Source of the DNA: Isoetes taiwanensis
Lineage: Eukaryota > Streptophyta > Lycopodiopsida > Isoetales > Isoetaceae
Direction: 5' to 3'
Length of the DNA: 64,000 bases
Assembly (NCBI GenBank): GCA_021234155.1
Contig: JAJEKV010000295.1
Coordinates: 62,001 to 126,000 of the forward strand
The notes beneath the pieces are model-generated. The model did not search any database and had not been told where the DNA came from. It was given only the letters and a program-made list of their open reading frames with translations. Position numbers and translations under genes: made by a program. Shown here one piece after another: positions 4,143 through 54,139 of the stretch. Each line of letters opens with the position of its first letter. Position 1 is the first letter of the stretch.

Positions 4143-4143
4143 G

Positions 4144-4156: not shown

Positions 4157-4161
4157 ACAAC

Positions 4162-8355: not shown

Positions 8356-8356
8356 G

Positions 8357-11183: not shown

Positions 11184-11219
11184 TTCCGAATTGGAATGTC
11201 AGTTTTAAGCCATTGTATT

Positions 11220-14794: not shown

Positions 14795-14989
14795 GCCTCG
14801 CTACTTCGACATCAACACGCAACAGGGATGAACCACACTCAGATAGTGATCCCGGAGGGTGGTCTCAAAACGTCCACGTGTTTTCATTGTATTGGTTTGT
14901 CCGTGCATGGGCTGGCAAAATTCAAACTTCGACCACCTGATTAGTCCACGCCGCTATCTCCACCGTCCAAACATTCTCATATTCTGGCT

Positions 14990-15480
14990 GAAGAATTCAA
15001 ACAACACTCAACAAGTTAAATTAATAAACTTGTTAATATATTCAAGCAAGCAATAGACAAGATAAATTACAAGTTATCTTCGAACCATTGCATTTGCATC
15101 CTCATCATACAAATAAGATATGAAATTGATTTGCAACACTTCGACAGCCCAAGCCCGGATCATATCATGTCCTTCGGCTACTGCTGTATTCCCCCTTCAC
15201 AATGATAATCCAATGCAATTCTTCTTTTTCTGTTTATAACCTTCAGTCCGGCCGCTATGCCGGACCGAACGAGCAGCTTGCTATCACATTTCTTAATTCG
15301 GAACTTTGAATCATATTTCCCCCTTTAGGATATGCAAGGTGTCGTTCTTATAATGACCTGCTATGTATATTCAATGGTTTATTAACCATTGCCGTATTTG
15401 CAAATCCCAATCGTGCTTCAAGTGCTTCAAGTGCTTCAAGCACTACCTAAGTGCAATTACAGCATGACATATATTCAACA
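14990..15480 (-). repeat. Copia-2 3' LTR
   Basis: On the plus strand it runs from TGAAGAATTCAAAC to CATATATTCAACA and contains the triplet repeat GTGCTTCAAGTGCTTCAAG. It is nearly identical to 20973-21462, with several differences in the central GC-rich part. Confidence 0.88.
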
Positions 15481-15493
15481 TTCCCCCTTCATG
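15481..15493 (-). other. Copia-2 polypurine tract
   Basis: The minus strand reads CATGAAGGGGGAA directly before the 3' LTR start TGTTGAAT. Confidence 0.65.
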
Positions 15494-15529
15494 TTGTAAT
15501 CCACACATTTAATCATGCACTTCAACTCG

Positions 15530-16666: not shown

Positions 16667-17825
16667 CCCCTTTGGTTTGGGTGCATATTCACACAGGGGG
16701 GTGACGTAGGGCAGCGAGAGCCCTCATAATTGTATTTTGCACGTACGAAATCAACACCATATAGTATTCCGCTTGAAATCTTATAGTATTTTGCGAATCT
16801 TGTTACACAGTATAGCAAATTTTGTACTTGCATACCCCACAAATGAGAAACTTTACGTACGGTGTAGATTAAGGAATAAGGGGTGAATATGCCTATCCAA
16901 CAGCTCTCGTTGCCCGAAGTCACCCCCCGTGTGAATATACACCCAAACCAAAGGGGGTTTAAGGGGGATTTTAATTTAAATGTGTTGGACACAATGATTG
17001 TGTTAATTAATGTCAATGGTAGTTATGTGTTGGTTGTTAATGTCAATGGTTGTTATGTGTTGGTTGTTATGTGTTGGGGGATTTAATTTTTATATGTTGG
17101 ATGTTAATGGTTTGTGTTGCTCCTATCCAGGCTCAGACTCATAGGGGAAGTAGACTGACGACTGGGTCTCAACATAGAGCAGACCGAGATATAACAATGG
17201 CGGGGCTTGCTATAGACAATGGCTGTGACGCTCCCTGAATATATACGGCGCTCCGAACGTATACATACAGGGACTTCCCCCTCCCATGGCAATCAGCTCA
17301 CCATGAGCAGGGCCCTCCGTCTAACTCAGACCATCCGTAGAAAGATGCCCGGGTGAAGGACACGGAGGTGTCATTCGGCCCGCGCATTCAATGGGACTCC
17401 TAAGTCGCGGAAGCGTGAATACATGTTAGCACACAGCATAAATCATACATAAATAACCACCACGAAGGGCGCATATAGTGCAGTTTCCCCGCTGGCAACA
17501 CATTTCTTATCATAACTTTTGATCCAGAACTCTGTTTGAGATGATTTTTATTGCGTTAGAAAGCTCTCTCTGAGATCTTTTTGATAGTGTATAATATAGA
17601 TATGTTTGGTTAAGTTATCTATGCTAAAACAACAATTTTTCGGCCGGGTTTGGTAGGCTTTCACATCCTACCAGTTGATTAATACAGGATTGGGCTATTG
17701 GATATTGTTTTATGGCTCATTCCGAAGCTTGCAAAAAATTACCATGCATTCCTCTCTCTCCCTCTTCTCCCTCCTCTCTCTTCTCTCTCCTCTCTCTCTC
17801 CTCTCCCTTCTCCCCCTTTCTTCTT
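16667..17825. mobile_element. Repeat insertion inside the copia-2 reverse transcriptase
   Basis: About 1.16 kb separates LEEE (17826) from YMKIPPGF (16666), adjacent residues in copia RT. It holds one truncated foldback unit (16667-17110: left arm mostly missing, right arm intact), a unit at 17460-17750 matching 52530-53005 (CATAACTTTTGATCCAGA, TTTTTCGGCCGGGTTTGG), and a 75-bp CT tract (17750-17825) at the join. No target duplication or clear termini are visible. The shared order with 51.6-53.0 kb shows it is a mobile or duplicated composite. Confidence 0.65.
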
Positions 17826-18799
17826 CTAAGTCTGCATTCAAGAAAGCAGTAGTTACATCCATATGATGTACTTCCAAGTCTGCTGCATTTGCAATTGACA
17901 GTAGCATTCTTATGCTATTCATTTTTACCAGAGGAGAAAAAGTTTCTTCATAATCTTGTCCATACCTCTGGGTAAATCCCTGAGCAACCAGCCTTGCTTT
18001 GAATTTTGGTGTTACTCCATCTGCTTGAGTCTTTATCTTGTACAACCATTTGTTACCAACAATATTCTTGTCACTAGGAGTATCTACAACCTCATAAGTG
18101 TTTGTTCTCTCAAATGATTGCATTTCTTCTGCATGGCCTTGACCCGGTTTTGCAATCATGTGAGGTTACTGACTTCATCATAACGCGTTTTAGGTACAGC
18201 TACATCCAAATGCATTAGAATTTTCAACGAGTCCAAGAATCTCACCTTCTTTTTCTTTCAATCTTACGCTCCTACGAGGCATCACGTCCAAGTAGATCAT
18301 GTTGTGTAGCGGCTTCCCCTTAAGCATTTACGCTACGTCCTCCTTTTCTTTTTAACAACATTATTTTGTACCTCATCTTGTTGATCTTTGAACTGCTTTG
18401 CGCGCACATTGTCATCGGCAATAACATTATGGTCGGTTGACAATTGTTCATCTTCCTCATCCCAGTCAACTGTAGTTGTTGGCTCAGCCTTTTCTTCTGG
18501 AATATTTGGTACTTCCTCAATCCTGTGGTTATCTGTTTGACCTTGATTGTTGATCCCCGGTAATACCTTGTAGTATTGTTCTTCATCAAATACAACATCC
18601 CTGCTAATTAGAATTTTCCTTTTGCTTGGATCATAAACCCCTGTGTGCCTTCGATTCTTGGTCATATCCAACCGGTATGTAATATAAGCTTTGTCATCAA
18701 GCTTCTTCCTCAACTCATCTGGCACATGAACAAATGCCAGACATCCATAGGCCTTAAGCCTTTCATAGTCTGGTGTTTTGTTAGCCCATAATGTAATTG
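17826..18799 (-). pseudogene. Copia-2 reverse transcriptase, N-terminal part
   Basis: Includes LKAYGCLAFVHVPDELRKKL from the integrase tail, then NKWLYKIKTQADGVTPKF, KARLVAQGFTQRYGQDYEET and HHMDVTTAFLNADLEE. The frame ends abruptly at 17826, where a foreign pyrimidine-rich block begins. It resumes at 16666. Confidence 0.82.
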
Positions 18800-19429
18800 G
18801 AATTTCTCCTTTGATGCTTAAGGATGGTAACTGGTTTTGCACATGCACTGCTTTGCCTTAATGACTTCTTCCCAAAGGAAATTTGGCAAACCAGAGTATT
18901 TTAGCATACTCCTTACGGCATTGAGAATGGTTCTATTCTTCCTTTCAGCAATCCCATTTTGCTGAGGCGAGAACCTGCATGTCAGTTGCCTCTTAATGCC
19001 ATGTATATTGCAATATTGCTTGAATTCATTAGACATGAACTCTCCTCCCTATATCGACCTTAAGCATTTGATTTTCCTTTCCTGTTTCAACTTGCACCTC
19101 ATTTGCAAATTTTTAAATGCTTCCAATGCTAGGTCTTTTTTGTGCTCAAGCGATAAACTCGGTCATTCGACTATAGTCATCAATAAAGGTCATAAAATAC
19201 CTTTTTCCAAAAATGCTAGTAACATTTAAAGGCCCACACAAATCTGTGTGTATCAGGTCCAGCTTATTCCTTGCCCTTTTTTCTGATTTCTTAAAGGGAA
19301 GTCTACTATGCTTGCCTAAAATGCAGCCCACACATTTAAGCTTCTCATTATCATCAGTTGTGCCCTTGATCAGCCCTTTCTTGATCATAAGTTTTGTGAG
19401 TTTTAGAGTTTACATGACACATTCTCTCA
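18800..19429 (-). pseudogene. Copia-2 integrase region, broken
   Basis: Contains CVGCILGKHSRLPF, HTDLCGPLNV (first Asp) and the third-acid segment SPQQNGIAERKNRT at about 18950. Frame changes near 19140 and 18830 break it. The segment that should hold the second catalytic Asp (near 19070) is damaged. Confidence 0.8.
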
Positions 19430-20939
19430 TGCTATGTTTTTGTACTTGCACATGTTACAAGGTTAACACTTGGAACATAATGATTTAAGTTTAAACCAAA
19501 TAAATTGCCAATTCTTTTGCCAAGAAACTTGAGTTTATTGTTGAGAAACACTTTACATTCCAATCTCTCAAAGAGAACTTTATACCCAAGATCAACTAAC
19601 TGGCAAACTGAAATCAGATTTCTAACTAAACCTGGAACACAAAGCACATTTTCTAACTTGACAGCCTTCCCTTCAAGATCATACAGTTCAAGCATTCCTG
19701 TATCTTTGATTTCTTGCAAATCACCATTTCCTAGTTGCACATGTCCACTTTTTACTTTCTTGCAATCTTTAAGCAACTTTGCGGATGATGTTACTGTCCT
19801 CTCAGCTCCTGAATCTACAATTATCATATTGTGATCATTCTCATGCATTAAATGACATAATTTAGCATAACTAACCTCATCATCTTCATTTTGCTCGTCC
19901 TCCTCACTTCGAGTCTCATGTGTTAAATTTAATCTTTGGATTATCTTTAGAACTTCCCTTTCCTTTTTGTACAAATGTCCTTTGCCTCGCCTCTAGTTTT
20001 GCCTTTAGCATTACGCCCCTTTTTTTTGGGGACGGTGGAAGCAAAGTGGCCTTTACCATCACAATTGTAACATATAACTTCCTTTCCTGTTTTTGGACAA
20101 TCAGCCCTTAAATGACCATATGCATTGCAATTATAACAAGGTCCAACTTTGTCCCTGCCAGCCTTGCCAAAACCCCTCTTTTCCTTATGTTTACGCATAA
20201 AGCACTTACGCAGCCTTTGTTCGTCTTCATCTTGGCCAAAGCGCCTCTGTTTCAAATTCGGGTTCATTATCATTTGTATTGCATGATCTTTGGTTCTTGC
20301 AATATTCCTTAGAAGAGTAGCCAAGTAAGCATTGTGAGAAACAGATACGGAAATAGCCAAAGAATTGATATTGCTCATTTAATATAACACCGCACCTTCT
20401 AGGTGCGCTACAATGGAATCAAAATTTTCACAAAATTCAGGTTATATTATCTTTCTCATGTAGCTTTAGTTTCCTCAATCTGCTTCTCTAAAACATCAAT
20501 GCGGGATGATGTTTTAACTTCATAATTTGTGACCATGTAGATCCACATTTCACTAGGGCTTAGCCCTCTAAGCTTGAGCTTAATAGCTGTTCCAACCTTA
20601 CAGCAAATGATAGCTTGAGCCTCTTTAATCTTAATTACCTCATTAGTTGACACACTTGAGGTGGTTTGTTGGACCTGCACTTTTCTGCGGCAGACTATAC
20701 TAGCTTCACCACTTCCACCACCGTGGAATCACGTGCTTGAGCTTGAACGGCTCCCCTAGTTGACCCCCGCACCAAAGCATTAGCACTAGATCTCCTGCTT
20801 GCTTTAGGATCAACTAAATACCACGGGTTTTCAAACTCCGTGGACTTCACGGATACTTTGTTTCGGACTTGGAAACCACTTTCCCCTTGAACACCTCAAT
20901 GGCATTGAGCAGATTTGCTCCAAATCTGCTAGACATGAT
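19430..20939 (-). pseudogene. Copia-2 gag and protease region, broken
   Basis: Begins MSSRFGANLLNAIEVFKG at about 20939, homologous to copia-1 gag, but is frameshifted within 100 bp. A later segment encodes two CCHC knuckles, CYNCNAYGHLRADCP and CYNCDGKGHFASTVP (final Cys changed to Val) at about 20045-20165. The aspartic protease motif MIIVDSGAERTVTSS is at about 19790-19835, followed by LENVLCVPGLVRNLISV. Confidence 0.82.
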
Positions 20940-20959
20940 GAATTTTTATAGGATCTGTA

Positions 20960-20971
20960 GCTCTGATACCA
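20960..20971 (-). other. Copia-2 primer-binding site
   Basis: The reverse complement reads TGGTATCAGAGC, the Met-tRNA complement, just inside the 5' LTR. Confidence 0.85.
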
Positions 20972-20972
20972 A

Positions 20973-21462
20973 TGAAGAATTCAAACAACACTCAACAAGT
21001 TAAATTAATAAACTTGTTAATATATTCAAGCAAGCAATAGACAAGATAAATTACAAGTTATCTTCGAACCATTGCATTTGCATCCTCATCATACAAATAA
21101 GATATGAAATTGATTTGCAACACCCGACAAAGCCAAGTGGGATCATATCATGTCCTCAGGCCTCTGGCTGTATTCCCCTTCACAATGATAATCCAATGCA
21201 ATTCTTCTTTTTTTTTTATAACCTTCGGTCCGGCGCTATCTTGGGACCGAACAACGAATTTTGCTATCACATTTCTTAATTCGGAACTTTGAATCATATT
21301 TCCCCCTTTAGGATATGCAAGGTGTCGTTCTTATAATGACCTGCTATGTATATTCAATGGTTTATTAACCATTGCCGTATTTGCAAATCCCAATCGTGCT
21401 TCAAGTGCTTCAAGTGCTTCAAGCACTACCTAAGTGCAATTACAACATGACATATATTCAAC
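20973..21462 (-). repeat. Copia-2 5' LTR
   Basis: Partner of 14990-15480, ending CATATATTCAAC directly against MULE sequence GGCCTCCGGAATCAC. Confidence 0.88.
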
Positions 21463-22435
21463 GGCCTCCGGAATCACAGGGGCAAATGACGATGGGGATC
21501 CCGGAGGAGGGGATCACGTAGGCGGATAGCGTCCGCCGTTATCAGCCTGGGGGTGATCCCGGAGGAGGGGATCACATAGGCGGATAGCGTCCGCCGTTAT
21601 CAGCCAGGGGGGTGATCCCGGAGGAGGGGATCCGGGGTCCGGTGCCGGGATCCCGGAGGCCGGGATCACCACTACGGATAGCGTGAACAAACGATCCGCG
21701 GCCCCGAGCCACGGGATCCAAGTCACGGGATCCACGTCACCATATCGGGGATCCCGGAGGAGGGGATCACCACGGCGGATAGCGCCCCGCCGCTATAAGG
21801 GGATCCGGGAGGTGGGATCCCACCTCGGGGAGCATCTGCCGTTATCACCTATTGGGGTGCATCCGAGGAGGAGGATCGCGTCCAGGGTGGGGATGATCCC
21901 GAGGAGGAGGATCACCTCGGCGGGCGCGGCCGGGGATCCCTCCCACGGGTGGGAGGGGATCACCTGGCGGATAGCGCCCGCCGTTATCGGGCCCAGCACG
22001 GTGATCCCGGAGGAGGGATCCAAGGCCCCGGTGCCCGGGATCCCGGGAGGTGGGGGATCAACTTCGGCCGGATTAAGGCCCGTAGATTATCACAGCCGCC
22101 GGTGATCCCGGAGGAGGGGATCCGCGTCCGGGGTGCCGGGGATCCCGGAGGAGGGGATCACCTCGGCGGATATCGTCTGCCGTTAACTGCCAGCAACCGT
22201 GGGGATCCCGGAGGAGGGGATCGCGTGGATGATCCCGAGGCGGGGATCTCTGAGGCGCGGACAGCCGCGATTGCACGGGGGTTTGGACGACGGGGATGGT
22301 CTGGGCCGACGTGGCGTCTGCCGTACCTCAGAACGGGGTCTCCCGAACGGACCCCGTCGAGAGAGACCCGGGATCCCGAAGGCCGGTAAATTTATCTCCA
22401 GGATCACCGAATCAAGGGTAAAAGTATCGTGAGCC
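21463..22435 (-). repeat. Right terminal inverted repeat of MULE, GGATCC-rich array
   Basis: Repeats of GGATCCCGGAGGAGGGGATC with GGCGGATAGCGYCCGCCGTTATC spacers, in reverse complement to 491-1560. The outermost 230 bp are the best-matching part. Confidence 0.8.
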
Positions 22436-22782: not shown

Positions 22783-24402
22783 TCAGTGGTAGCCTAAGGG
22801 AGCAGGAGCTTCCTTGAGTTGCCTTCCATGGCAGTGAACGTCCTGCACAATAAACATCATCCAATTGAGTATAAAAATCATTTAAATATTGCAAAGTAAA
22901 ACAAAAGTACAGAAGTTCTTGACTCCAATTTCATCTAAAAACTTCTAAAAGTTCTTGCCTGGGATTCTCACATTCCTAAAATTCTAAGCAGCCTATCAAT
23001 TTCCAATTTCAGCACGTGAATGTGGAGTTCAGATTCCAAATCTAAATCTTTAGCAAATTATAAACTGATACTACCCTAAGATTGTGCAAGGTAAATCAAT
23101 TCCAGAATTAATACAAAAACAGCTTTCATGGCTTACCGAGGCAAAATGGTTCACATCACGATGGTGGGCTTCATCAGCTCGAACAACCATAACTACATCC
23201 CGAAGGGTAGCATCTGCTGGCAACCTCCAATAATCAATGGCTATGGCGGGAGCAGGAACATTAGGAATGCTACCATTGTCAATCTGCTTCAAATACTGGG
23301 TATATGAATAAATTGCCTCTTCTTCCAGGTACCCAACAACACGGTGTGCAAGGCGAGGAGACAGCAAATATAAAAGGAAATATGCATTGAAGAATACTCC
23401 CTGCACTGTAAATACCAAAGCCCTCTCATACCATTTTGGCTGGGCTACTTCCATGAATGTCATAAGATGCATCCTCTCATTTTCTGCTTCTTCCAATAGT
23501 GCTTTTATCCATCCACCTGAATGCTCAAATTTTCTTAGAGATTTGCAGTGCAAAAGCATCCCCCCAACCATCCCTGGCACCGCTGCAACTGTTTCTAACA
23601 TCATTGCTCGGCACCCATATCGTTTCTGCAACATTTGTTCAGATCTTAGAAGTTTCAAATTAATTCTTCCTATAACCAATTGCGAAAACCATCCTATGTA
23701 TTTAAAATCAGTACCATCTGCATTATTTATGAGTACAATGATCCTGATTAATTGTTGTATTCTATATCTAATAAGCCGAACATACCCGGAAGAAGATGTC
23801 TGTTGGAATTCTCATAGCTTTCACACCGTAATAAGCAAGCTTATCTCCTAATGAGAGAGGTACTTTATGCCTCTCAAGATCGATGCTGATATCTGCAGTG
23901 TATGTATCAGATGGCTGCAAAAAGGAAAAAAAAGGATTAAAAATATTTCAAGATCCCCGAAACAAAAACAGGAATTAGAGCTCAGGAATCATGTCGAAGC
24001 AAGAAATTTCTTGCATACTTTGAAGCAATTCCAAGGCCAAGGGCTGCCATCTGGGCGCAAAGGCTTCTGAGAAGAAATCCCCCAATATTTGGCCACTTCT
24101 AAGGCCTTATCTTGACGCAAAGATTCCGACGGATTGGCAACGGGAGCGGAATTATCTGATTTTGCAGCTTCAGAATTTGGCAGATCGGCAGCAATCGTGC
24201 TTCGCATCCTCAGAAAAAACGGATAACCTAAAGATTGATAACTGAATTTTGGAGCGTGGCCATACGAATAAAGATTTCGAGCGGCAAAATCTGAGCCCTG
24301 GGCCACGGAAAAGGATCGGGAAAACAGGAGGGTTCCTGGCGGATTGAATGTCCTGACGCCGATGTGCAGGCAAGGCAAAAGCTTAGATCGAGCTCCAGAC
24401 AT
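22783..24402 (-). CDS. Alternative oxidase, mitochondrial (intact, four exons)
   Basis: Exons: 24402-24019, 23914-23786, 23625-23137 and 22842-22783. Each junction is GT/AG, with phase kept, giving 353 residues. Exon sizes 129, 489 and 57+stop match the conserved plant AOX structure. The protein oxidises ubiquinol and reduces oxygen to water on the matrix side of the inner mitochondrial membrane, without pumping protons. The N-terminus ([19 protein letters not shown]) is basic and suits a mitochondrial target peptide. Di-iron ligands are visible: LETVAAVPG (Glu), [10 protein letters not shown] (Glu, His), [12 protein letters not shown] (Glu) and [12 protein letters not shown] (Glu, His). PWPWNCF holds the Cys usually called CysII. 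The C-terminus APLGYH is typical. I chose the ATG at 24402 because it heads the leader; an in-frame upstream extension exists. It is the only clearly intact host gene here. The MULE lies 347 bp past its stop. Confidence 0.93.
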
Positions 24403-24589
24403 GGCTATGGTGATCGCCGGACTTAATGTGGAAAAGCGGAATGGAATTGGCAAGGCATACAAGGAAAGGCTAAAAAGGAAGGGTTTCTTGGGCAGCAAGA
24501 AAAGTGCTGTGTAATGTGAAGCTTCTTTAGGCTAATAGGACGAGGTGGTATATTCTAAAAGGTAAGGAAAGACTGCGCGCCCCCTTATA

Positions 24590-31230: not shown

Positions 31231-31806
31231 CCAAACAATTATTTACTGTCATTATGAGACGAGGAAGCAAACAATATTTCTACCAACAACAATCTAAAAT
31301 AATCCTAACATATAAACAATATATGACAACGTCAAATTGAGTGCACTAAGTACATTGAGTTCCTTTTGGAATAATTGATAGTTCACTTATGGTCAAGATA
31401 GTTTTATCCCAGATTTGTAAGGGAGGGTGCCCAGTACCAGAACAGGGGCCCTAACATGGCGCACCTTTATGGCACACTTTAACGGCCAAGATCTTCCCAT
31501 TTGAACTTTCTTTCCTTCCTTCCTTTTGGACTTTTGATTTGGATGGCCAGGATCTTCCGGTTCTACTATTTTCATATATAATAAAAAATCTTTTTTCAGG
31601 GGAGGCACGAACCAACATCTTTGTAAAAAGCTCAGTCAAACCTTTAATTTGACTATTCATATGTCTCATTCTGAGCTTGTTAGGACAAAAAACGAATGTC
31701 AGGATACCTAACTGTGCCATGTTGGGCAAAAAAGGGGGTCACTTTAGGGCCTCATAACTTTTGCTACAGGGCACCGGAGTGGGAGATTTTAGGGTCACTA
31801 GAAAGA

Positions 31807-31827
31807 GGGTAGAAGCATGAAAGGGTG
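31807..31827 (+). repeat. Left terminal inverted repeat of the candidate transposon
   Basis: 21 bp beginning GGGTAGAAGC and ending GAAAGGGTG, identical to the complement of 41176-41196. Beyond it the two ends diverge. Confidence 0.65.
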
Positions 31828-31989
31828 ATTGAATTTTTTTGTATATTGATGTAAAAATTTGAACTGGGTTAAAGTGTTTGTAATGTACATTTTGAATTTT
31901 ACATGGAGTTGCCTATCATTAATAAAGGCGGTTGACGTACAATATTCTCCATAATTATACCAAATCCTCCCGAAATCTTGTACTAGCTT

Positions 31990-32035
31990 CTCTATCAATA
32001 AAATCTAAATATCTTGAAAAAAAAAAAAAAAAAAA
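31990..32035 (+). other. AATAAA signal followed by a poly(A) run
   Basis: CAATAAAATCTAAATATCTTG is followed by about 21 adenines (32016-32036), the layout of a polyadenylated transcript 3' end copied into DNA. It lies just inside the candidate transposon, so a retro-inserted fragment may sit there. Confidence 0.5.
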
Positions 32036-32259
32036 ACTTTGGCGCACATTTTGAACTTTACTCAATCGATCAAACATGGCTCCGGATTCTACCCTCAACG
32101 AAAACTTGGCCCGAATCGATTATAGCTGCTCTTAAATCGAATGCATTTCAAGAAACAAATGTATCTTGAACAAATTGAAATCCCTTTCCTTCAAGCAAGA
32201 TAATACAAATCCCTTCAAGCAAAGAGTACAAATCGGTTAATAATCGATTTCTTGTGCGG

Positions 32260-35247
32260 GGATGTTGTATCCCTTTCTCGAGAATGGATCGATGTCTTAA
32301 AGCACCGGTTGAAGAAGAAACTATGGAAGAAGGATTGGACTCTCATGCAAGCACTTCCGAGGTCAAGATCGGGTTGATTTCAATCCTCCCGTTGATGAAG
32401 TTTTAGAAAAGCAATCGTTACAAGCGGTGCAAAGAAAATCGAAACAGAGGGTTTGTAGGGGTGGATACGTGACAAAGCCAATTAGAAGAAAGGTGAATGC
32501 TTCGTCAAATCTCATAATGAATGAGGTATCTAATTTGACTCCAAAACAAAGAAAGTATATTTGCAAGAAGATTATTGGGACAAAAGATTGCAATTCCTAT
32601 TTGAGCCGGTCATTGGAAGGCCTCAAGAGGCTATCGTGGAAAACAGATCCGGTAAAGAATTTAAAGGATGGCCTCCAAGACATCAAAATGCAAATAGCAA
32701 TGACGGACTTTTCGCAAAGCATTACGTACTATCTATGGTGGTTGGAGAGGAAGGAGAATTACGAAGACTTCACTAGCGACTAAAATTGCTGAAAATACAT
32801 TCTAGAAATATGAAACTAGCAATGAGAGAGAAGGAAAAGAATGTCACTAGGTGGAACAAATGGTGGGCATTAGCGGTCGAAATCCAAGAACAAATACGAT
32901 AGATCAGGCTATGAAGGATATGGTTGCTCAGTTTTGGTTAGATAACTCAAAGGTTTCACCAAAAATTAGAGATGTCATGAAGAAGAGGACACAACCAATT
33001 CAATATATTGACATTACACAGGTACGACTGTAATTTAGCTGTAATTGCATCTTGTTTTTCAGAATAAAGAATGTAAAGTTTGTAGATTTCTTTACTTTTT
33101 GGCAGAATAAAGATGTCTTTTATTTTGTAACACTGATGTAAAGTTTGTAACAGATTTCTTTACTTTTTGAATGTAATGTAGATGCAGTCTGCCCTAGTTG
33201 TTCTACATGGAAATGTCAAATTATTTCATGGCAACACGTACATGTATATTTGTTTACATGTATGTTCTGGATGTATATTTGTTTACATGTATATTCTGGA
33301 TGTATATTTGTTTACATGTATATTCTGGATGTATTGTAGATGTAGGCAGTAACTAAGAAGAAATTAGTGTGGAGATGTATTGTTTGTCAAAAAATTATGT
33401 GACTTCATAGTAAATGAAATAAAATTCATGTCAGAATGTACATGTATGTGTGGGAGTTTAGGGTCTTGAATATGTAAAAGATTTGTATGTAATGTAATGT
33501 AATGAGGTGACTATATTTATTTCTTTGTAATTTTACAGTGAATTATTCAATTTTGTGGATCAATTATCCGAGGTTCTGGATTGGGCTTAGGCAATTTGAA
33601 TACTTAAAACCTTCTTGCATTAGAAAGCTAAAGGAAAGAAACACATGTTGTTGCGTGAAACATGAGCAATCGATCTGTACAAGCAGTGCATTTAATTTGA
33701 TGAGGTCAAGACTCCATGAAAATTGTTCGTGCAATTGTGGTGTGTGCGATCCGAAGCTCATCTTTGGAATATGTCAAGCGAAGGACAAGACATTTGATAA
33801 TGTTAGCACATTTTGGAGGGCTATGGTATGTGACAGAGCAAAGAAAGCAACGAGTGGCATAAGCTACAATGTATCAAATCGATTGTGGAAATTGTGGGAA
33901 ACAATTAATTGAGTTGTGTCCAAGAGAATACAAGGAGCGATTGATCAAACGCTTGATTGGCAAGTCTATGGTTACGTTAATGAGCCCTCAAGAAAGGAAC
34001 TTCACGAAGACTAAAGCTAATTGACAAGAAAGGCAGCTCCAAGAATATGTTGGATAACATGTTTGATCATATGTCGAAGTTTGTATATCATAACTTTGTG
34101 GCACATTGCAGGAGCAAACAATTCAAGGAATCCATGAAGAGTCTTCATTGATGATACCAGATTATCGGTTGTTGATTTCGGAGAATTATACTTTGAAGCC
34201 ATTCAACGAGATTCAAGCACAACATTGGTACAATGAACAAATCAGCATATTGGTCCACATCACGATGTTCAAGGTATTGGGGTAAAATGAGGAAATGTGT
34301 GCACTTCTTTATTTCGGATGACAAAACACATGATACTCACTTTGTACAAAAAGCATTCAAGATGCACCTCAATTGGCTGAAAGAAAATGGTGTTGGTCAT
34401 ATGAAATACCACTTAGTTTGGTCCGATCGGTGTGCAGCCCAATTCAAGTCGAGAAGAGCTTTCTATCATGTAACTAGGTATCATCAAGAGCATAAGATCG
34501 AATGCAATGGAATTTCTTTGGCTCGGGACATGAGAAGGGCACACATGACGGAGAAGGAGCCATAGCCAAACTATGGCTCGAGGCGTAACAAAGAAAAAAA
34601 GGATGGGAAAGTGATAAAAATGCGTAAACCGCATGTGAGGTTCTTGAAGAGAAAGTTTCGATGTGGAAAGGGTATTTTGGAAGGTGTCCGACATTGACTG
34701 TTCCCAAAGATTTGATGTGCTCCCGGTGAAAGGGGTGCAATCTCTTCATTGCGTTATCATCCATAGATCCAAATGATCCAACAAAGTTAATGTGTAGATC
34801 TCTTTCATGTTTTTGTAAGGCATGCATCAATTTTGATTGGCCACGCTTGTGAGAATGCTGATCATTGTGGCGGTGGGAGTTGAGAAAACTAGAGCCTACA
34901 AACGGGGACAATGTTGAAGAAGATGGGTACGAAGGCAGAGGACTTGTGGGCAAATGACGTGGACAATGTGGATGAGACAGTGCAGGTTGGAGATTATTTT
35001 GCATCATTCACATCCCCAGACAATTATGAAAGGGTCCCTTATTATCTCATCCAGTGCCCTCGAAGAAGACACCAAGGATGACTATGGAAATGAATTTTAT
35101 TGTGGTAATGAAGTTATAGCTGGTAACTACTTTGAATTGATTCCTGGTTGCCATCAAAAGTACAGGCTTATTCAAGGAAAGAAAGTTCTTGTCCATCCCG
35201 AAAGTCGATGGTGGGGTGAGATTTCCATTGGAGCCAGTCAAACATAA
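32260..35247 (+). pseudogene. Putative transposase-like gene with Cys-rich block and SDxCxxQFKS motif, broken
   Basis: Fragments in order: an N-terminal helical, basic part (PKQRKYICKKIIGTKDCNSY, 32540-32780, and PKIRDVMKKRTQPIQYIDIT near 32960); a cysteine-rich block (33640-33760: CCCVKHEQS then ENCSCNCGVC); FWRAMVCDRAKKA; a DF..ENYTLKPFNEIQAQHW segment (34165-34230); LVWSDRCAAQFKSRRAF (34415-34465); after a frameshift near 34505, WNFFGSGHEKGTHDGEGA; and a C-terminal part with VGDYFASFTSPDNYERVPYY (34980-35050) and QKYRLIQGKKVLVHPES. I recall uncharacterised proteins in plants and animals with the same DF.xNY / SDGCxxQFK / HGKGxxDGxGA order. The spaced acidic residues suggest an RNase-H-like DDE enzyme. 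That function is inference. Many stops and frameshifts make this copy inactive. Confidence 0.55.
33222..33337 (+). repeat. Tandem repeat, about 29-bp unit, three copies
   Basis: GTATATTTGTTTACATGTAT followed by TTCTGGAT repeats with minor changes. It lies in an apparent intron of the transposase-like gene. Confidence 0.75.
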
Positions 35248-35249
35248 GA

Positions 35250-36000
35250 TTAAAGGTACATCTTATGCATATGAACTGACTAACTATTGGCATGAAATGT
35301 TGCTGGGAAATTTGCCAGAGATTGTAGAATCTCTGTAATACGTTAACCTGTTGTTGAAGTAACTTTTCTATGCACTAAGGCATGGACTTGCAAACTGAAT
35401 GTAATCAGAATGTGAACCAGATTAAAACACAAACATTAATATAATGTTTATATACTTCCAAGACTGTTATACTTAGTGTAAGTTCAATTGGTTTCCCTGT
35501 TCGGCATTGATCTCCTCAAGAAGCAATAGTCCTTGTGACTCCATTTTTTGTAAAGCTTTTTCATTAATGAGAACTCCTCTTCTCTACAAATTGTTGTGAC
35601 TATTTTTTTTGCTTTAACTGTTCTCTCGAAGTTTCCTTTGTTCTTTTAGTTAAGCGAACTATTTCTATCCTTTTACGTATAGATATAAGAAACATGTTTG
35701 GTACTTAGTTTGCAACTCAAGTTTTTGGTGCAACTCAAGTTAATGGAGTTTTGTCATTAATTATAAAATGCAAAGTACAATTCTTGAAATAGTATACCAA
35801 AACAAACATTAAAGCCAACAAGGAATTTCAAGTTGCAGAATTTATGATCTGCACACTAACAAAATATGGTAACCAGCAGCCAATAGGAAAATATGTTCAG
35901 AGTATTTTTCTTTAAATGCATCTTGAAGCATCTGAAGCATCGCCAAAAGTTTACGGATGTTGGTCCGTAAAACCTCTTGAACAATACCATATGCATGAAA
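35250..36000. other. Spacer between the two convergent genes; no gene seen
   Basis: AT-rich with no motif recognised. Confidence 0.4.
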
Positions 36001-36019
36001 TGAACACTAAACTGTTAGG

Positions 36020-36560
36020 GTGTGTATACCTCACCAAACCATGCACCATACCATGCCCCACACTATCATATTCACCAGAACGAGCACATCCCACCACACA
36101 CCACACCATTCACCACACACCACACCACACACCACACCATTCACCACACACCATACACCATAGACTATACACCAACTATCATATTCACCGTAGCCAGCAC
36201 ATCCCACCACACACCACACCACTCACCCCACCACTCTCCCCCCACCACACACCACACCATTCACCACACACCATACACCATAGTCCATACACCAACTATC
36301 ATATTGTTCGCGTAAGCAGGCACATCCACCACACACCACACCATTCACCACATACCCCACCACACACTCCACCACACACCACACCATTCACCACACACCA
36401 TACACCATAGACCATACACCAACTATCATATTCACGAAGCGGATGTGGTGTGTGGTGAATGGTGTGGTGGTGTGTGGGGTGGTGGTGGGGGTGGTGGTGG
36501 TGGTGTGTGTAGTGGTGTGTGGTGGTATGATGTGGTGTGGTGGAGTGTGGTGGGGTGTGG
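36020..36560. repeat. CA-rich minisatellite that flips to GT-rich (inverted satellite)
   Basis: From 36040 to 36430 the plus strand is nearly free of G and consists of CACCACACACCACACCATT-like units in higher-order repeats of 100-130 bp that include CACCATACACCATAG and CCAACTATCATATTC. At about 36440 the strand bias flips and GTGGTGTGTGGTGAATGGTG-like sequence runs to 36560. The two parts are mutually complementary and could fold into a long hairpin. Open frames here are His/Thr or Val/Gly repeats and are not genes. Confidence 0.85.
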
Positions 36561-37849
36561 TAGTGTGGTATTGAAATAATCAAAACAATCAAGTAATGTT
36601 GTAACAGTCGAAACAATCAAGTAACTGTTTTGATTGACCAAAAAGGGTACAAGGGTTCTTTAAATCAGAAATCTTTTTTCTTCAAAAAAAAAAAAAAAAC
36701 TTACATAGTCATAAAGTATACTATGTGTAGTATACTATTCAAGCATAGTGTCATTTACACATTCCTTATGATAGGAAATGTGAACACAAATGTGAACAAA
36801 AGATATATATAAGCTGTTACATAGTTCATCTTGCAAAATCGGATACTCATGATCATTTGGAAATCGAGGATGGCTGGCGACACGTTCTTTTCGGATTGGC
36901 ATCACAATGCATGACCAAAGCATCTATTAGAAATTGTAAATGGATTGTATGTATTCATGAGAGAACCATTTAGATGTAATCGTGACATCCATAAATAAGG
37001 TTAGAAATATTTAAAGGAACATGAGATGCGGTACATACAAGGGAAGGCATACAACTTACTTCCATATCTCTACCGGAGACAAGAGCTTCAACATATTTGT
37101 GCATAAATCCCATCACATACAACCCACATGATGTTAAATCGGACTCTTTGTGGCACCTCTACTTGCTGAATCCGATTAACATTATTTCTCTTCATGAAAT
37201 CGACGCCTCTAGATACTTGACCGATCGATGTGGTTAACATTTTTGTGTGTGCAAACCTATATATCACTAAATTTAGCGGACCAATTAGCGAAGAAAAGCA
37301 AAGCAACAACTTAAAGTATTACATACCCTTTGATTGCTTTCTCGTTCGTCGCATAACCTGTAAGAGGATTCAAGACGTGAATTCCTGGTGCAGGTAGGAT
37401 CTTGGAATCAGATGGTGCGAGCGTAAAAACAGCCAGCACAAAATGGTCATTCTCAAGGATAGGTGCAAGGATATGATGGCATTTAGCTACCACAATCCCC
37501 TTCATCCCTGATTTCACTATTTCAATGACATTCAGTGATCCTTCAGCTGATTCACCCTTTCTTTTGCTGCTGGTAGCTTCTCTAAACCTTATATAGTTGT
37601 AAGCAGGATAAAAAAAGATTTTGCTCTTCCACTCGAAAGGCAATGTCTCATACAAGCACCTGGATTAGATTAAGATTAACATTACAGACAAGGAATAGCA
37701 ACAAATACAAATTTCGGTTACAACCAGGTTATTACCTGCCATAAAGATCCACTAAGCGGCTACTCATTTTAGAGTTAGTTGCACATAAAATTGCTATGTC
37801 AGATGCAACCACTTTCATTTCAGCCGGCGGACAGTTCTTGAATGGCGTG

Positions 37850-37878
37850 AATGGCGTGAATGGCGCGAATTCCATAAG
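37850..37878. repeat. Three tandem 10-bp units in the protease gene
   Basis: GGCGTGAATGGCGTGAATGG then GCGCGAATTC; read on the minus strand this gives FAPFTPFTPFKN, a short repeat within the protein. Confidence 0.7.
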
Positions 37879-37914
37879 TTTATCCTTGTCATCATTTCTG
37901 TTGTCAGATCCAAG

Positions 37915-38175
37915 ATGTTAGTGTCATATTAACAATTGATCCATGACAATAAAGCATAAATTGATACCTTCCAATCTACGTTTCCGATGGTTTAGACGCA
38001 AAACGAGTAGAATATAATAAGCTATGAAGCATAAGTAAGTCAATGTTAGTGTCATATTAACAATTGATCCATGACAATAAAGCATAAATTGATACCTTCC
38101 AATCTGTTTCCAATTGGTTTAGACACGCAAAACGAGTAAAATATAATAAGCTACTTGAAGTATAAGTAAGTCAAT
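37915..38175. repeat. Tandem duplication, two ~130-bp copies
   Basis: GTTAGTGTCATATTAACAAT starts both copies (about 37918 and 38046). Each ends with AAGTAAGTCAATGT. It lies in an intron of the minus-strand protease gene. Confidence 0.85.
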
Positions 38176-39739
38176 GTAAGCTAGCAATTACCGTTTTGCT
38201 TGTGGATGTCCCCGCTTCACGGTTTGCACTCTCTTTTTCCAATTTGTTTTGGCATCGGCTTTGACCATAAATTTAGTCGTTGCCTTGGCTGCAATCTCCA
38301 AGGCTTCTTCAACATCATCTAGCTCCTTTGAATCGTCGCAAGTCTCGAAGACAAGAAAGTGCTTCATTCTAATGTTTTGAAAGCAAGACAAAAAAGAAAC
38401 ACGTACCGCCAAAGAACAAGCCTTTTCCTCAACTTGAAAAGCAAGCAGCCTTCGTGGATTTGTTTTCAATGTCGTCACCAAACATCTTTGATAATTTTAT
38501 CGTAAACACGTCAGCGTAAGTTTCAAAATACAAAAAAAAAAAAATTAGAAACCCCGAAAAGGAGAGAATTATTACGGGCTTTCACTAGTTGCTCAATAAT
38601 AGCGACTCCGGCTTCAACGGTGGGATCTCTTTTTGGAAAACAACCTCTGTTTGCAAAATATTGAACATTAGTGAACTCTAACTACAACAGATGCAATCTT
38701 AATGTAATCGGAATGTCATCACCCTACCTTCCACATACCCCTCTGTCTCCAAATCCTTGACCGATTGCTTATGAGTTGTTGCAATTCTCAAAGGTGATGT
38801 AGATGTGGATGGACTTCCAACATTGATAGCGTAAGCATCTTTTGTGTGCGAGGTTCAAGAATTGGGATGTCGAGAATGGTAAATGCAACCCCATCTCAAT
38901 AACATTCTTCTTTTCACCTACAACATGAAATTTTGCTATATTGAACTTAAGCATAGTGCACGAAACATGAATTGTTTAGTTTACCTGCAGTTTTACTTCT
39001 TCCTTTCTTGATACTACCCATATGCGCATTGACACAATTGGGTGTCAATAAGAAATGTAAACACTTGATTCGAATCAAGGGAAGATGTAGAGTAGATAGA
39101 AGCAAAATCAAGAAAAACAATCGGATGCAAATCAAAAGCAGAACAAATGTTAATTACATGCAAGTAGGTTTTTACTATGGGCAAACTTTCTGGCGATAAT
39201 GTAACGACAAAATAGAAGTACATTAGTGTACATAGCTATCACAATGTAAAAAGGAAAACCAAATACTAAATTCAAATGTATTTGAACAAAATATTTTATC
39301 AATACACCCTATCAAATACATCATTCAAACATTGAATGTAAAGGAAAGTCAAATACCAAATTCATATGCATTTTCTGATCACATGTAAATGCAAAGTGCA
39401 AATATCAATGCAATACACCCTATTAATACACCCTGTAAAGGAATTTTAAAAAGCACTTCATGGCACATGTAAATGTAAAGTATGTGAAGCAAATACATTT
39501 CCTCTTTACAAGTAAAAGACAAAACCACGCCAAATCAAATGTTAATCTGAGTTATGTACATGATGGAAACTAACTACATCTAAGTACACTCAAACTAATT
39601 ATGTAATCAAAATAGAAATAGATGTACCTTGAAGGGATTCCTAAAAAGCGATTAGTTGTCGAGGTCCTTGGACCATGAACAATCATGTACACATGTATTC
39701 GTTGTTGAAACCCCGAATATAAGACAAAATAGACAATAT

Positions 39740-40380
39740 GTATGACCACAAAGTGGAGATATTACCATGGTCGAGTCAAGGCAATCATTGCATTTGCTGC
39801 AAGTATTGCTTATATGTGAGAATGAAGCGCCCCGTCTTCTTTGCGAGTATGGGAGCGGGGCTGCAGGCCTATCGGGTCCGACCTTTCCAAATGCTTAGTC
39901 ATCTCCTTTATTCTATTCTCACGGTTGGAATTAACTTCCAAATCCTTGCTGATTTTTTTCAATGGCGACTTCTAATTCTTGCAAATCAGCCTTTAAACAA
40001 TCAATGGGAATCATTAGAGCATCTAAGTCGACAATATAACTTGATTTCTCCTCCTCTAAATGGGATGCCAAAGCCATTTGCACATCAGGTTGGCTTCCGC
40101 TTGCTTTTTAAACCTGCCATAATCTTTGAAGCGCCTCACATATTTTTGCATCTTTACTCGCTGACAAGTCTTGTCAAGAAGCTCTTATCACTCTCATGCT
40201 TCAAGCAGTTCAATTTCCATTGTTTTCCTTTTCTCTTTTAAAGTCGTATTTCATCAAGCATGGAGGAGAATCTAATGCTCTTGTTTCCCTCCACCTTTTC
40301 ATCATTTCCAACTGCTGCCCCAATTCTACGAGGCATATATTTAATAGCTTTAACATTGGAAGACTTTCTTGTAGCTAATT
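39740..40380 (-). pseudogene. Coiled-coil-like remnant, possible 5' part of the minus-strand gene
   Basis: On the minus strand, short frames read VATRKSSNVKAIKYMPRRIG and KSIRFSSMLDEI, then charged helical sequence with IEKNQQGFGS-like and RENRIKEMTKHLERS segments. The frame changes repeatedly and I recognise no family. It may be upstream exons of the C48 gene at 37-39 kb or a separate relic inside the same transposon. Confidence 0.3.
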
Positions 40381-40904
40381 ACACAGGTGATTCTTTTTGA
40401 GAGCCTTTTGAATGAAGACTTGCACTTGCTTTCACCTCATCCCAATCAATGCGTACTCCTTTGTAATGAAGTGCATATGCTCGGGCAAAATACAATGGAA
40501 TGTGATGATTTGCAATGTCCCTCCTACAAAAACGTGCTCATACGAGAAAAAAAATCGCCATCCAACCGGGCATAAATCACGCACTCTTGATAACCCCTAA
40601 CGGCGGGGGCTTGAACCCCAAACATCACGCACTATTTGCACTAGCCACGGGAAACATGCTATCAAAATTGTTGCTCCTAAGTCTGCCTGATGCTTACCTT
40701 GTCAAACTCGAGGTGACAATACCTCCCGATCTGAAGAAGACCCACTCTTGAGTTTTTGAACCTTGATTCTAGTGGGAGACCTTGGCATGGGCTTCTGAGG
40801 GTTTGTTGCGAGGAGATTTCCTTGGAGATGTCTTTGTTCCAAGTCTGTTTGGTCATGATCTCTTCCCCCGGTGCTTCAGCTCTCACGAAAATGCAAGCTT
40901 TTGG

Positions 40905-41045
40905 CTATGGAGGTCCCGATCTTGGCTATGGATGGATGTCAAGCTTTGGCTATGGAGGGTTGAATATGGATGTCAAGCTTTCGGCTATGGAGGTTCGAAT
41001 ATGGATGTCAAGCTTTTCGGCTATGGAGGTTCGAGCGGGAGGAAG
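40905..41045 (+). repeat. Subterminal tandem repeat, about 33-bp unit, five copies
   Basis: TTTGGCTATGGAGGTTCGAA with ATATGGATGTCAAGC between copies. Read through, it would encode FGYGG motifs. It ends about 130 bp inside the right end of the candidate transposon. Confidence 0.75.
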
Positions 41046-41175
41046 GTTGAGCAGCAGAGGAGGAGAGTTCAAAATTATTTGCCCTATTAATGATTCATTC
41101 CAAGAATAATAATTTTTGGGGGGGATTTCCTTACATTTTGAATTTGTAAATGTAAAATACGGGCATGTTTTTGCC

Positions 41176-41196
41176 CACCCTTTCATGCTTCTACCC
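41176..41196 (-). repeat. Right terminal inverted repeat of the candidate transposon
   Basis: CACCCTTTC...GCTTCTACCC, exact inverse of 31807-31827, followed by AAGA. Confidence 0.65.
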
Positions 41197-41283
41197 AAGA
41201 GCAACTCCGGAGATTGAATCAGCCATTTGTCCTCATCTGAGCGGCAGAAGGCTTTCATTGGACCATTTTACTCTTAAGTGTCC

Positions 41284-51369: not shown

Positions 51370-51590
51370 ATATGTAGCATAATAACAAGAGGGTTTTCTT
51401 TGTGTTGTAAACTTTATGACTTTGGGAATAATGGGATCAATCTGCTCTATCTTTATGGTAACTTTTACTTATGTTCTATTTGTTTTATTGTGATCAAATT
51501 CAAAGCTTCTGGTGATGAAAGCCTCAAATGAATTCTAGTTTTTTTCTCGGGTTTGAATTCTAAAATTTTTTGTCACCTGCGGTTGGGGGC
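51370..51590 (+). repeat. Outer-arm repeat, copy A (unpaired)
   Basis: AACTTTATGACTTTGGGAAT to AATTCTAAAATTTTTTG matches 53165-53335 in the same orientation and 53930-54085 inverted. No second arm follows foldback copy A. Confidence 0.75.
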
Positions 51591-51617
51591 GTCCCTAAGG
51601 CCCGAAAATTTTTTTTT

Positions 51618-52204
51618 GCAACACAAACCATTAACATCAACATATAAAAATTAAATCCCCAACACATAACAACCATTGACATTAACAACCAACACATAAC
51701 TACCATTGACATTAATTAACATAACCATTGGGTCCAACACATTTAAATTAAAATACCCCTTAAACCCCCTTTGGTTTAGGTGCATATTCACCGGGGTGAC
51801 GAGGGGCAGCGAGAGCCCTCATAATTGTATTTTGCACGCATTTAAATCAACACCATATAGTATTCGCTTTTGAAATCTTATAGTATTTTGCGAATCTTAT
51901 TATACAAGATAGCAAATTTTGTACTTGCATACCCCACAAACGAGGAACTTTACGTGCACGGTATAGATTAAGGAATAAGGGGTGAATATGCCTATCCAAA
52001 CGGCTCTCGTTGCCGAGTCACCCCCCGTGTGAATATGCACCCAAACCAAAGGGGGTTTAAGGGGGATTTTAATTTAAATGTGTTGGACCCAATGGTTATG
52101 TTAATTAATGTCAATGGTAGTTATGTGTTGGTTGTTAATGTCAATGGTTGTTATGTGTTGGGGGATTTAATTTTTATATGTTGGATGTTAATGGTTTGTG
52201 TTGC
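51618..52204. repeat. Foldback element copy A, 587 bp
   Basis: The left half reads GCAACACAAACCATTAACAT, TTAAATCCCCAACACATAAC, CCCCCTTTGGTTTAGGTGCA. The right half is its inverse, ending TTGGATGTTAATGGTTTGTG then TTGC. Arms are about 190 bp each around a unique core (GAGAGCCCTCATAATTGTAT, GTACTTGCATACCCCACAAA). No coding potential. It resembles a long foldback MITE. Confidence 0.8.
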
Positions 52205-52205
52205 C

Positions 52206-52345
52206 AATATGTAGCATAATAACAGGGGGTTTTCTTTGTGTTTTTGTACGCTTTTCACTAAGGTTTTCCTATGATTTCGTGATGTATTCAAATGGATGTA
52301 CTAATGCGTACATCTAGAGTGCACCATTTACGAGCCATTGATTTT
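52206..52345 (+). repeat. Copy 2 of the interspersed repeat at 50487
   Basis: CAATATGTAGCATAATAACA through TCTAGAGTGCACCATTTACG. It is directly adjacent to foldback copy A. Confidence 0.75.
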
Positions 52346-53108: not shown

Positions 53109-54139
53109 ATCCATGGAGGCCAAAAGGAACTTTGTTAAATTCAGGTTGAAAAATGTTTGTGTATGGGTGTTGCAAACTTTATGACTTCGGAATAATGGGA
53201 TTAATCACATTTCTATCTTTATGGTAAGTTTTACTTATGTTCTATTTGTTTTATTGTGATGAAATTCAAAAGCTCTGGGTGATGAAAGCCTCAAATGAAT
53301 TCTAGTTTTTCGGTTTGAATTCTAAAATTTTTATCAATTAACATCAACCATTAAATCCCCAACACATAACAACCAACACATAACAACCATTGACATTAAC
53401 AACCAACACATAACTACCATTGACATTAATTAACACAACCATTGGGTCCAACACATTTAAATTAAAATCCCCTCAAACCCCCTTTGGTTTGGGTGCATAT
53501 TCACACGGGGGTGGCGTGGGGCGTGAGAGCCCTCATAATTGTATTTTGCACGCATCTGAAATCAACATCATATAGTATTTCGCTTGAAATCTTATAGTAT
53601 TTTGCGAATCTTGTTATACAGTATAGCAAATATTGTACTTGCATACCCCACAAACGAGGAACTTTACGTACGGTGTAGATTAAGGAATAAGGGGTGAATA
53701 TGCCTATCCAAGCGACTCTCGTTGCGAGTCACCCCCGTGTGAATATGCACCCAAACCAAAGGGGGTTTGAGGGGGATTTTAATTTAAATGTGTTGGACCC
53801 AATGGTTGTGTTAATTAATGTCAATGGTAGTTATGTGTTGGTTGTTAATGTCAATGGTTGTTATGTGTTGGTTGTTATGTGTTGGGGGATTTAATGGTTG
53901 GATGTTAATTGGATAAAAATTTTAGAATTCAAACCAGAAAAAAAACTAGAATTCATTTGAGGCTTTCATCACCTGTAGCTTTTGAATTTCATCACAATAA
54001 AACAAATAGAACATAAGTAAAACTTACCATAAAGATAGAGCAGATTAATCCCATTATTCTGAAAGTCATAAAGTTTGCAACACCCATACACAAACATTTT
54101 TCAACTGGAATTTAACAGCAGCCTTTGGCCTCCATGGAT
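53109..54139. repeat. Foldback element copy B with outer arms: 1.03-kb palindrome
   Basis: The left arm starts ATCCATGGAGGCC and runs through the outer-arm repeat (53165-53335) and the foldback unit. The right arm is its inverse and ends GGCCTCCATGGAT. Arms are about 450-500 bp each with few mismatches, around a core near 53560-53700. It is the most complete member of the family: copy A lacks the right outer arm and the copy at 16.7 kb lacks most of the left arm. Confidence 0.8.

What the first reader, a model, noticed from the sequence alone, without database searches (positions are those of the whole stretch)
31807..41196. A candidate undescribed DNA transposon: 21-bp perfect TIR, 4-bp AAGA duplication, SDxCxxQFK-type gene plus a Ulp1 protease
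Exact inverted 21-mers 9.35 kb apart, each bordered outside by AAGA, enclose two convergent gene relics. One has the order Cys-rich block, DF..ENY..EIQ..HW, WSDRCAAQFKS, FFGSGHEKGTHDGEGA, which I recall only from uncharacterised eukaryotic proteins. The spaced acidic residues look like an RNase-H-fold DDE site. No superfamily I know (hAT, MULE, CACTA, PIF, piggyBac, Tc1, Kolobok and others) combines this TIR, a 4-bp duplication and this protein.
Basis: partly seen in the sequence, partly recalled or inferred. Interest (0 to 1): 0.9.

Follow-up and report, generated by a model that had tools for sequence, protein, structure and literature searches.

The report
Sola-like DNA transposon in quillwort genome
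This is one copy of a many-copy "jumping gene" family in what is very probably a quillwort (a spore-bearing lycophyte plant); it inserts with a 4-letter target duplication and carries an integrase-like enzyme plus a second gene for a RING/Ulp1-like protein.

Summary
The 21-bp inverted repeats are exact, both bordered by AAGA. The assembly matches Isoetes taiwanensis in size and, nearly, in contig number. It holds 560 exact copies of the 21-mer (control 0). Of 29 TIR pairs examined, 24 have an exact 4-bp duplication; mismatched flanks give 2 of 380. Seven fetched empty sites each hold one copy of the tetranucleotide.

The left gene belongs to a family of at least 148 proteins (moss, liverworts, unnamed metagenome sources) in which no Pfam transposase domain was found. 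AlphaFold gives a confident RNase H fold with three almost invariant Asp at canonical catalytic places. The right gene is RING-like plus Ulp1-like, both below Pfam cut-offs.

The superfamily features given in a review fit; the AWWT target of one Sola2 group does not. No Sola protein was available, so membership is untested by sequence: Sola about 0.55, a separate lineage about 0.35.

"Relic" is uncertain: copies differ by many 1-2-nt indels in a Nanopore-based assembly. Excision was not examined.

The parts
31803..31806 (.). left target-site duplication AAGA
   Evidence: 4-bp duplications in 24 of 29 TIR pairs
31807..31827 (+). left 21-bp terminal inverted repeat
   Evidence: 560 exact genome copies, control 0
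32313..33021 (+). transposase 5' exon (frame broken here); 32872-33012 matches the N-terminal segment of moss P0028 and of P0066, P0101, P0115
   Evidence: open frames of 266 and 251 aa over this exon in copies L007 and L009
33022..33538 (+). likely GT-AG intron
   Evidence: inferred from the break in homology and the GT/AG letters
33539..35338 (+). transposase main exon: Cys-rich N part, RNase-H catalytic core, CxCx2Cx7C knuckle, C-terminal part; frame broken in this copy
   Evidence: profile A2 positions 11-630 of 639, collinear over 33565-35311 in changing frames; 64 of 64 relatives hit
34174..34176 (+). codon of first putative catalytic Asp (DFxENY motif)
   Evidence: column D212, Asp in 63 of 64
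34425..34427 (+). codon of second putative catalytic Asp (SDxCAAQFK motif)
   Evidence: column D303, 63 of 63
34547..34549 (+). codon of third putative catalytic Asp (HxKGTHDGxGA motif)
   Evidence: column D345, 62 of 62
36035..36560 (.). CACCA-rich satellite-like repeats inside the element
36970..37770 (-). Ulp1-like (Peptidase_C48) domain over several open frames, His in NDHFVLAVF and Cys in LTSCGLYVM
   Evidence: (E 0.00048, 20.5 bits against a cut-off of 20.7); found in 12 of 20 fetched copies
39679..39801 (-). RING-like zinc finger; that it belongs to the same gene as the Ulp1 domain is inferred
   Evidence: zf-RING_UBOX E 0.0031, 17.9 bits against a cut-off of 25.2; in 6 of 20 fetched copies
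40379..40904 (-). 5' exons of the second gene (inferred from open frames)
   Evidence: similar frame in 3 of 20 copies, L003, L009, L020
41176..41196 (-). right 21-bp terminal inverted repeat
41197..41200 (.). right target-site duplication AAGA

Best explanation
A copy of a fairly young, high-copy DNA transposon family in an assembly that is very probably Isoetes taiwanensis, most likely belonging to or closest to the Sola superfamily. Inferred mechanism: the transposase recognises the 21-bp ends through its N-terminal and Cys-rich parts and pairs the two ends; its RNase-H core (D-D-D, two metal ions) cuts and joins the 3' ends to target DNA with a 4-nt stagger, and gap filling makes the 4-bp duplication. 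The second gene, RING-like plus Ulp1-like, is an accessory: probably a SUMO/ubiquitin-directed protein that counters host control or modifies the transposase. Shown here: TIRs, 4-bp duplications, paralogous empty sites, copy number, near-invariance of the triad, and the second gene's domains in several copies. Predicted: the fold. Inferred: DNA binding by the N part, metal chemistry, excision (cut-and-paste rather than copy-in), the accessory's role, and that RING and Ulp1 form one protein. Sola membership is inferred, about 0.55; the confidence below is for the transposon and its integration mechanism.
Against: No Sola transposase could be compared. Foldseek gave no PDB match at E <= 0.001; its first row was NurA (E 0.0067), IstA second (E 0.12), with low TM-scores. 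None of the 24 duplications fits the AWWT target reported for dictyostelid Sola2. 4 of 20 and 1 of 9 pairs lack the 4-bp duplication. Neither of the two longest transposase frames printed holds all three Asp motifs: L012's lacks the third, L001's the first. Pfam scores for Ulp1 and RING are below the curated cut-offs, and a protein search with the Ulp1 part found nothing. The empty sites are paralogous repeats, not alleles. Excision was not examined.
Confidence: 0.85

Rival explanations
1. It is a lineage distinct from Sola: an undescribed superfamily of DDD transposons in lycophytes, bryophytes and unnamed eukaryotes, with large multi-gene elements.
For: No Pfam transposase domain matched any of 64 members: 23 families at E up to 1, the commonest being DUF6597 in 4 members (best E 0.00024); single weak matches include MURB-like MuDR (E 0.13) and CxC7 (E 0.11). 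No PDB sequence match. Ends GGG..CCC, no fixed target, RING/Ulp1 second gene.
Against: The Sola features given in a plant review fit where testable. Absence from Pfam says little, as I know of no Pfam model for Sola (recalled).
Confidence: 0.35
2. It belongs to another known superfamily (Ginger, Kolobok, piggyBac, MULE, hAT, Tc1/mariner, CACTA, PIF, KDZ).
For: RNase-H fold; nearest solved folds in the listing are integrases and Mos1. Ginger1 also makes 4-bp duplications and may carry Ulp1.
Against: Duplications are 4 bp and 0 of 24 are TTAA; not TA, not 7-12 bp. The TGTNR ends of Ginger are absent. D2-D3 spacing of 42 leaves little room for an insertion domain (inference). [quoted passage not shown] CACTA and PIF were not tested beyond duplication length (their 3-bp length is recalled).
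Confidence: 0.08
3. The RING/Ulp1 gene is a captured host fragment riding in some copies, without a role in transposition.
For: It lies on the opposite strand in several open frames; weak domain scores. Longer copies carry two more small open frames.
Against: Ulp1 part found in 12 of 20 fetched copies although the stretches end at 10 kb; RING in 6 of 20. Ulp1 domains recur in other transposons (Ginger1, Mutator).
Confidence: 0.25
4. Chance inverted repeat around two host gene relics.
For: None found beyond the window copy seen alone.
Against: 560 TIR copies against 0 control, 24 of 29 duplications, empty sites.
Confidence: 0.005

Closest known systems
Sola superfamily (Sola1/2/3)
   Same: DDD transposase (here predicted), 4-bp duplications, TIR within 11-1124 bp, size range 2-9 kb with some over 15 kb, known in a moss (PMC10741241 passages)
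   Different: Protein relation untested; target not AWWT as in dictyostelid Sola2 (PMC3627910 passages); a RING or Ulp1 gene is not mentioned for Sola in the passages read
Ginger1
   Same: 4-bp duplication; Ulp1 domain in several families (PMC2836005 passages)
   Different: Ginger1 targets CCGG/CCGT, ends TGTNR, has a Gypsy-like integrase with Ulp1 fused at its C-terminus; here no fixed target, GGG ends, Ulp1-like domain in a separate opposite gene
Mutator-like elements with Ulp1 (plants)
   Same: Plant DNA transposons of which some carry a Ulp1 domain
   Different: 7-12-bp duplications and relatively long TIRs
Retroviral integrases and Mos1/mariner transposase (fold)
   Same: RNase-H core and order of catalytic places in the predicted model
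   Different: 7-16% sequence identity in the aligned part of the 50 rows listed; other N- and C-terminal parts

Membership tests
DNA transposon with TIRs and a DD(D/E) transposase | Terminal inverted repeats in many copies | tested here: met
   560 exact TIRs, control 0
DNA transposon with TIRs and a DD(D/E) transposase | Fixed-length target duplication and empty sites | tested here: met
   24 of 29 with 4 bp; 7 of 7 fetched empty sites, paralogous
DNA transposon with TIRs and a DD(D/E) transposase | RNase-H-fold core with acidic triad | tested here: met
   Predicted, not measured:
DNA transposon with TIRs and a DD(D/E) transposase | Excision of the donor copy | not tested
   No footprint search was made
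Sola | 4-bp target duplication | tested here: met
   feature from PMC10741241
Sola | DDD transposase | tested here: met
   three almost invariant Asp at canonical RNase-H places; prediction only
Sola | TIR 11-1124 bp, element 2-9 kb, some over 15 kb | tested here: met
   21 bp; 8418-11796 bp in 9 complete copies
Sola | Transposase homologous to Sola1, Sola2 or Sola3 | not testable with these tools
   No Sola sequence at hand; founding paper not held
Sola2 (as in dictyostelids) | AT-rich AWWT duplications | tested here: not met
   0 of 24 duplications fit AWWT (list); feature from PMC3627910
Ginger | 5'-TGTNR ends and Gypsy-like integrase | tested here: not met
   ends GGGTAG; no integrase model among the Pfam matches of 64 members; features
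Kolobok / piggyBac | TTAA target duplication | tested here: not met
   0 of 24 are TTAA (list); feature from PMC9587614
hAT, P, MuDR, Kolobok, Dada group | C/DxxH between second D and last acid | tested here: not met
   absent in P0001 residues 303-345, one protein read by eye; feature
Mutator (MULE) | 7-12-bp duplication | tested here: not met
   4 bp; feature
Tc1/mariner | TA duplication | tested here: not met
   4 bp, no fixed sequence; feature
KDZ | Pfam KDZ transposase domain | tested here: inconclusive
   No KDZ transposase among the Pfam matches of 64 members; one weak CxC7 match in 1 member at E 0.11
Ulp1 / Peptidase_C48 | Profile score and catalytic His/Cys | tested here: inconclusive
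   20.5 bits against a cut-off of 20.7; His and Cys places read by eye; the Asp place reads as Asn (motif recalled)
RING finger | Profile score and C3HC4 spacing | tested here: inconclusive
   17.9 bits against 25.2, 17.4 for the L007 copy; last Cys pair spaced x3 instead of x2 (spacing rule recalled)

The most novel reading that the evidence does not exclude
The family founds a separate superfamily of eukaryotic DDD transposons, present in lycophytes, mosses, liverworts and unidentified protists or algae. Its large multi-gene elements (up to 11.8 kb in complete copies) encode, besides the transposase, a RING-Ulp1 protein that may act as a SUMO-targeted ubiquitin ligase and deSUMOylase in one, against host silencing.
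Probability: 0.33. Interest if true: 0.8.

Novelty: new variant of a known kind. Interest (0 to 1): 0.62.

Why it matters
It links a protein family in which no Pfam transposase domain was found to an element with known ends, target duplication and empty sites, so such proteins in other genomes can be tested as transposon-derived and their elements delimited. It adds a high-copy DNA transposon family to a lycophyte: about 280 elements, judged by halving 560 TIR ends, roughly 0.2% of the assembly at about 11 kb each (my estimate). The paired RING/Ulp1-like gene is a testable case of a transposon handling host SUMO or ubiquitin control.

Tried and rejected
Tried without result: relatives in viral contigs and genome contigs (none confirmed); PDB by sequence for transposase and Ulp1 (27: none; 52: two at E 0.47 and 1.3); Rfam and tRNA scans of the window (6, 7: none); protein search with the Ulp1 part (54: none at E <= 10 among 373 candidates); Foldseek PDB and BFVD (70, 72: none at E <= 0.001). 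Literature: all ten searches used. I saw the listings (titles, starts of abstracts) and passages of PMC3627910, PMC10741241, PMC2836005, PMC7466625, PMC8566536, PMC10541799 and PMC9587614; no title or abstract start listed names this combination, and (motif strings) found 0 papers. Only CC0, CC BY and CC BY-SA papers are held, so this absence is narrow. Families missing from the fold listing (for example hAT, MULE) are not excluded by it.

Rejected: chance inverted repeat; Kolobok, piggyBac, Tc1/mariner, MULE and Ginger by duplication or ends. Two small open frames in longer copies were seen but not explained; Pfam gave nothing above cut-off. Not done: excision footprints; right ends of 12 of the 18 fetched copies whose right end lay beyond the 10-kb stretch; search of the genome with a relative's protein (126, 129, 133, 134, 136 did not complete); TIR count with mismatches (135 not answered). 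A second structure job was not used.
Full report
Observation. The two 21-mers are exact inverted copies 9,348 bp apart and complementarity fades after them. Both are bordered by AAGA. With up to three mismatches, the window holds one further place, on the - strand at 9108-9128, with three. Most of the 60 longest exact inverted pairs listed lie in palindromic or tandem repeats.

Host. The genome search placed the window in an assembly of 1,658,258,908 bases in 1,110 contigs. The Isoetes taiwanensis assembly is 1658.30 Mb in 204 scaffolds plus 909 unplaced contigs, 1,113 together (PMC8566536, passages). I take the window to be from this quillwort; this rests on size and contig number only.

It moves as a unit. 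The exact TIR occurs 277 times on + and 283 on -, with none for the reversed control (the first 100 places were listed). Of these 100, 28 neighbouring pairs lie within 35 kb; 24 face inward, and 18 of the 24 are 8.9-13.4 kb long. The shortest is 8,869 bp, so none is of MITE size. The left 200 bp and right 200 bp gave 440 and 443 first-look candidates, 40 scored each; the left ones are 100% identical over the 200 bases, the full-length right ones 93-100%. I fetched 20 of the 40 left-end hits as 10-kb stretches; two held their right end, and I fetched right ends for six of the other 18. With the window this gives 9 complete copies of 8,418-11,796 bp. Of these, 8 have an exact 4-bp duplication; L003 shares only 3 bp. 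I then fetched the flanks of 20 of the 24 inward pairs (the window's is one of the four left out): 16 of 20 have the 4-bp duplication, against 2 of 380 wrongly paired flanks. Over the 24 duplications there is no fixed sequence.

Empty sites. Joining flanks with one tetranucleotide (three bases for L003) for the 9 complete copies and searching the genome gave junction-spanning matches for 7 of 9 (counted; 40 of 2,363 candidates scored; none for the window and L003). Seven fetched examples hold one copy of the tetranucleotide with no gap at the junction itself; ungapped identities were 150 of 158 to 159 of 160, and two have a gap nearby. The window's own site, searched alone, has 32 of 40 listed matches reaching at least 40 bases past the junction on both sides, best 89% (45 candidates, 40 scored). 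These were not fetched; several are 4-6 bases longer than the query, so small gaps exist whose place I did not examine. All these are paralogous repeats without the element, not alleles.

The left gene. A read-through of the + strand frames found 4 proteins (best E 1.4e-69). I aligned 64 of the 121 proteins then at hand, mainly the longer ones (A2). All 64 match the element by tblastn and none matches elsewhere in the window. The profile runs collinearly from position 11 to 630 of 639 over 33565-35311, in changing frames, and an upstream exon at 32872-33012 matches the N-terminal part of four relatives. Other copies keep longer open frames: 394 aa in L012 (profile 79-473) and 368 aa in L001 (profile 4-352). 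Neither holds all three Asp motifs: the L012 frame lacks the third, the L001 frame the first.

The right gene. Frames on the - strand give a Ulp1-like domain (Peptidase_C48, E 0.00048, 20.5 bits against a cut-off of 20.7) and a RING-like finger (zf-RING_UBOX, E 0.0031, 17.9 bits against 25.2). The Ulp1 part was found in 12 of 20 fetched copies and the RING in 6 of 20; most stretches end before the right end of the element. That RING and Ulp1 belong to one gene is inferred. In the 12 longer copies compared, about 1.3-2.6 kb more lies between the two genes, with small open frames on both strands in many of them.

Decay or sequencing error. Over 190 pairs of copies the median substitution identity of the left half is 96.5%. 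Six pairs looked at in detail differ by 2.5-3.3% substitutions but 45-61 gaps per 3.8 kb, most of 1-2 nt (53 of 56 in L008/L009). Among 11 sequences compared pairwise, 151 of 713 distinct single-base indel contexts lie in a CHG triplet against 7.5% of bases, and 352 lie in homopolymer runs (binomial p 6.6e-31, contexts not independent). The assembly is based on Nanopore long reads with Illumina. Errors at methylated CHG sites and homopolymers may therefore explain part of the broken frames; this is an inference, and methylation was not seen. Two LTR pairs of the window show only 1-nt gaps, 4 of 4 and 9 of 9. Against the L012 frame, third codon positions differ most in 16 of 16 copies compared (162:171:301), and 36% of differences are synonymous against 24% expected (four of 20 sequences were dropped for short or no alignment, and all comparisons share one reference).

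Classification. A plant review gives for Sola: DDD transposase, 4-bp duplications, 2-9 kb with some over 15 kb, TIRs of 11-1124 bp, presence in Physcomitrella, not common in flowering plants (PMC10741241, passages). Each of these that can be tested fits. Sola2 of dictyostelids has AWWT duplications (PMC3627910, passages), which 0 of 24 here fit. The founding paper is not held. From memory, not from any call, animal proteins with similar DFSENY / SDG..Q[FY]K / HGKG..DG motifs are common and unannotated; I could not confirm whether they are filed as Sola. Kolobok, piggyBac, Tc1/mariner, MULE and Ginger are excluded by duplication or ends. Ulp1 domains in other transposons are known (Ginger1, Mutator; PMC2836005, passages), so the accessory is not new in kind; no title or abstract start listed names its pairing with this transposase.

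Verdict. A genuine, high-copy DNA transposon family with a predicted DDD transposase of a protein family without a Pfam transposase match, and a RING/Ulp1-like companion. Most likely Sola or its sister; a separate superfamily is not excluded.

Noticed in passing
window 3576-8933: Ty1/copia LTR element with LTRs of about 568 bp, 96.7% identical, and pol frames on the + strand.
   Followed up: no
window 14989-21462: Second copia-like element, - strand, LTRs 94.3% identical.
   Followed up: no
window 23071-24531, - strand: Open frames that look like two exons of a plant alternative oxidase gene (identity recalled, no database call).
   Followed up: no
window 490-1430, 9947-11645, 21494-22435: GC-rich tandem repeats built on GATCCC-type units, in both orientations.
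   Followed up: no
window 51402-52207 and 53109-54139: Large imperfect palindromes (arms about 93% alike), with a related copy at 16667-17120; fold-back elements perhaps.
   Followed up: no
window 9108-9128, - strand: TIR-like 21-mer with three mismatches, possibly the end of a related family; no partner within three mismatches in the window.
   Followed up: partly
L001-L020, element part near window 35485-35523: Longer copies carry 1.3-2.6 kb absent here, with a + strand frame of about 100 aa (MAKFKTT...) and a - strand frame of about 130 aa in several of them.
   Followed up: partly
L001-L020 pairwise: Excess of 1-2-nt indels, enriched in CHG triplets, about half of the single-base ones in homopolymer runs: perhaps Nanopore errors in methylated repeats of this assembly.
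   Followed up: partly
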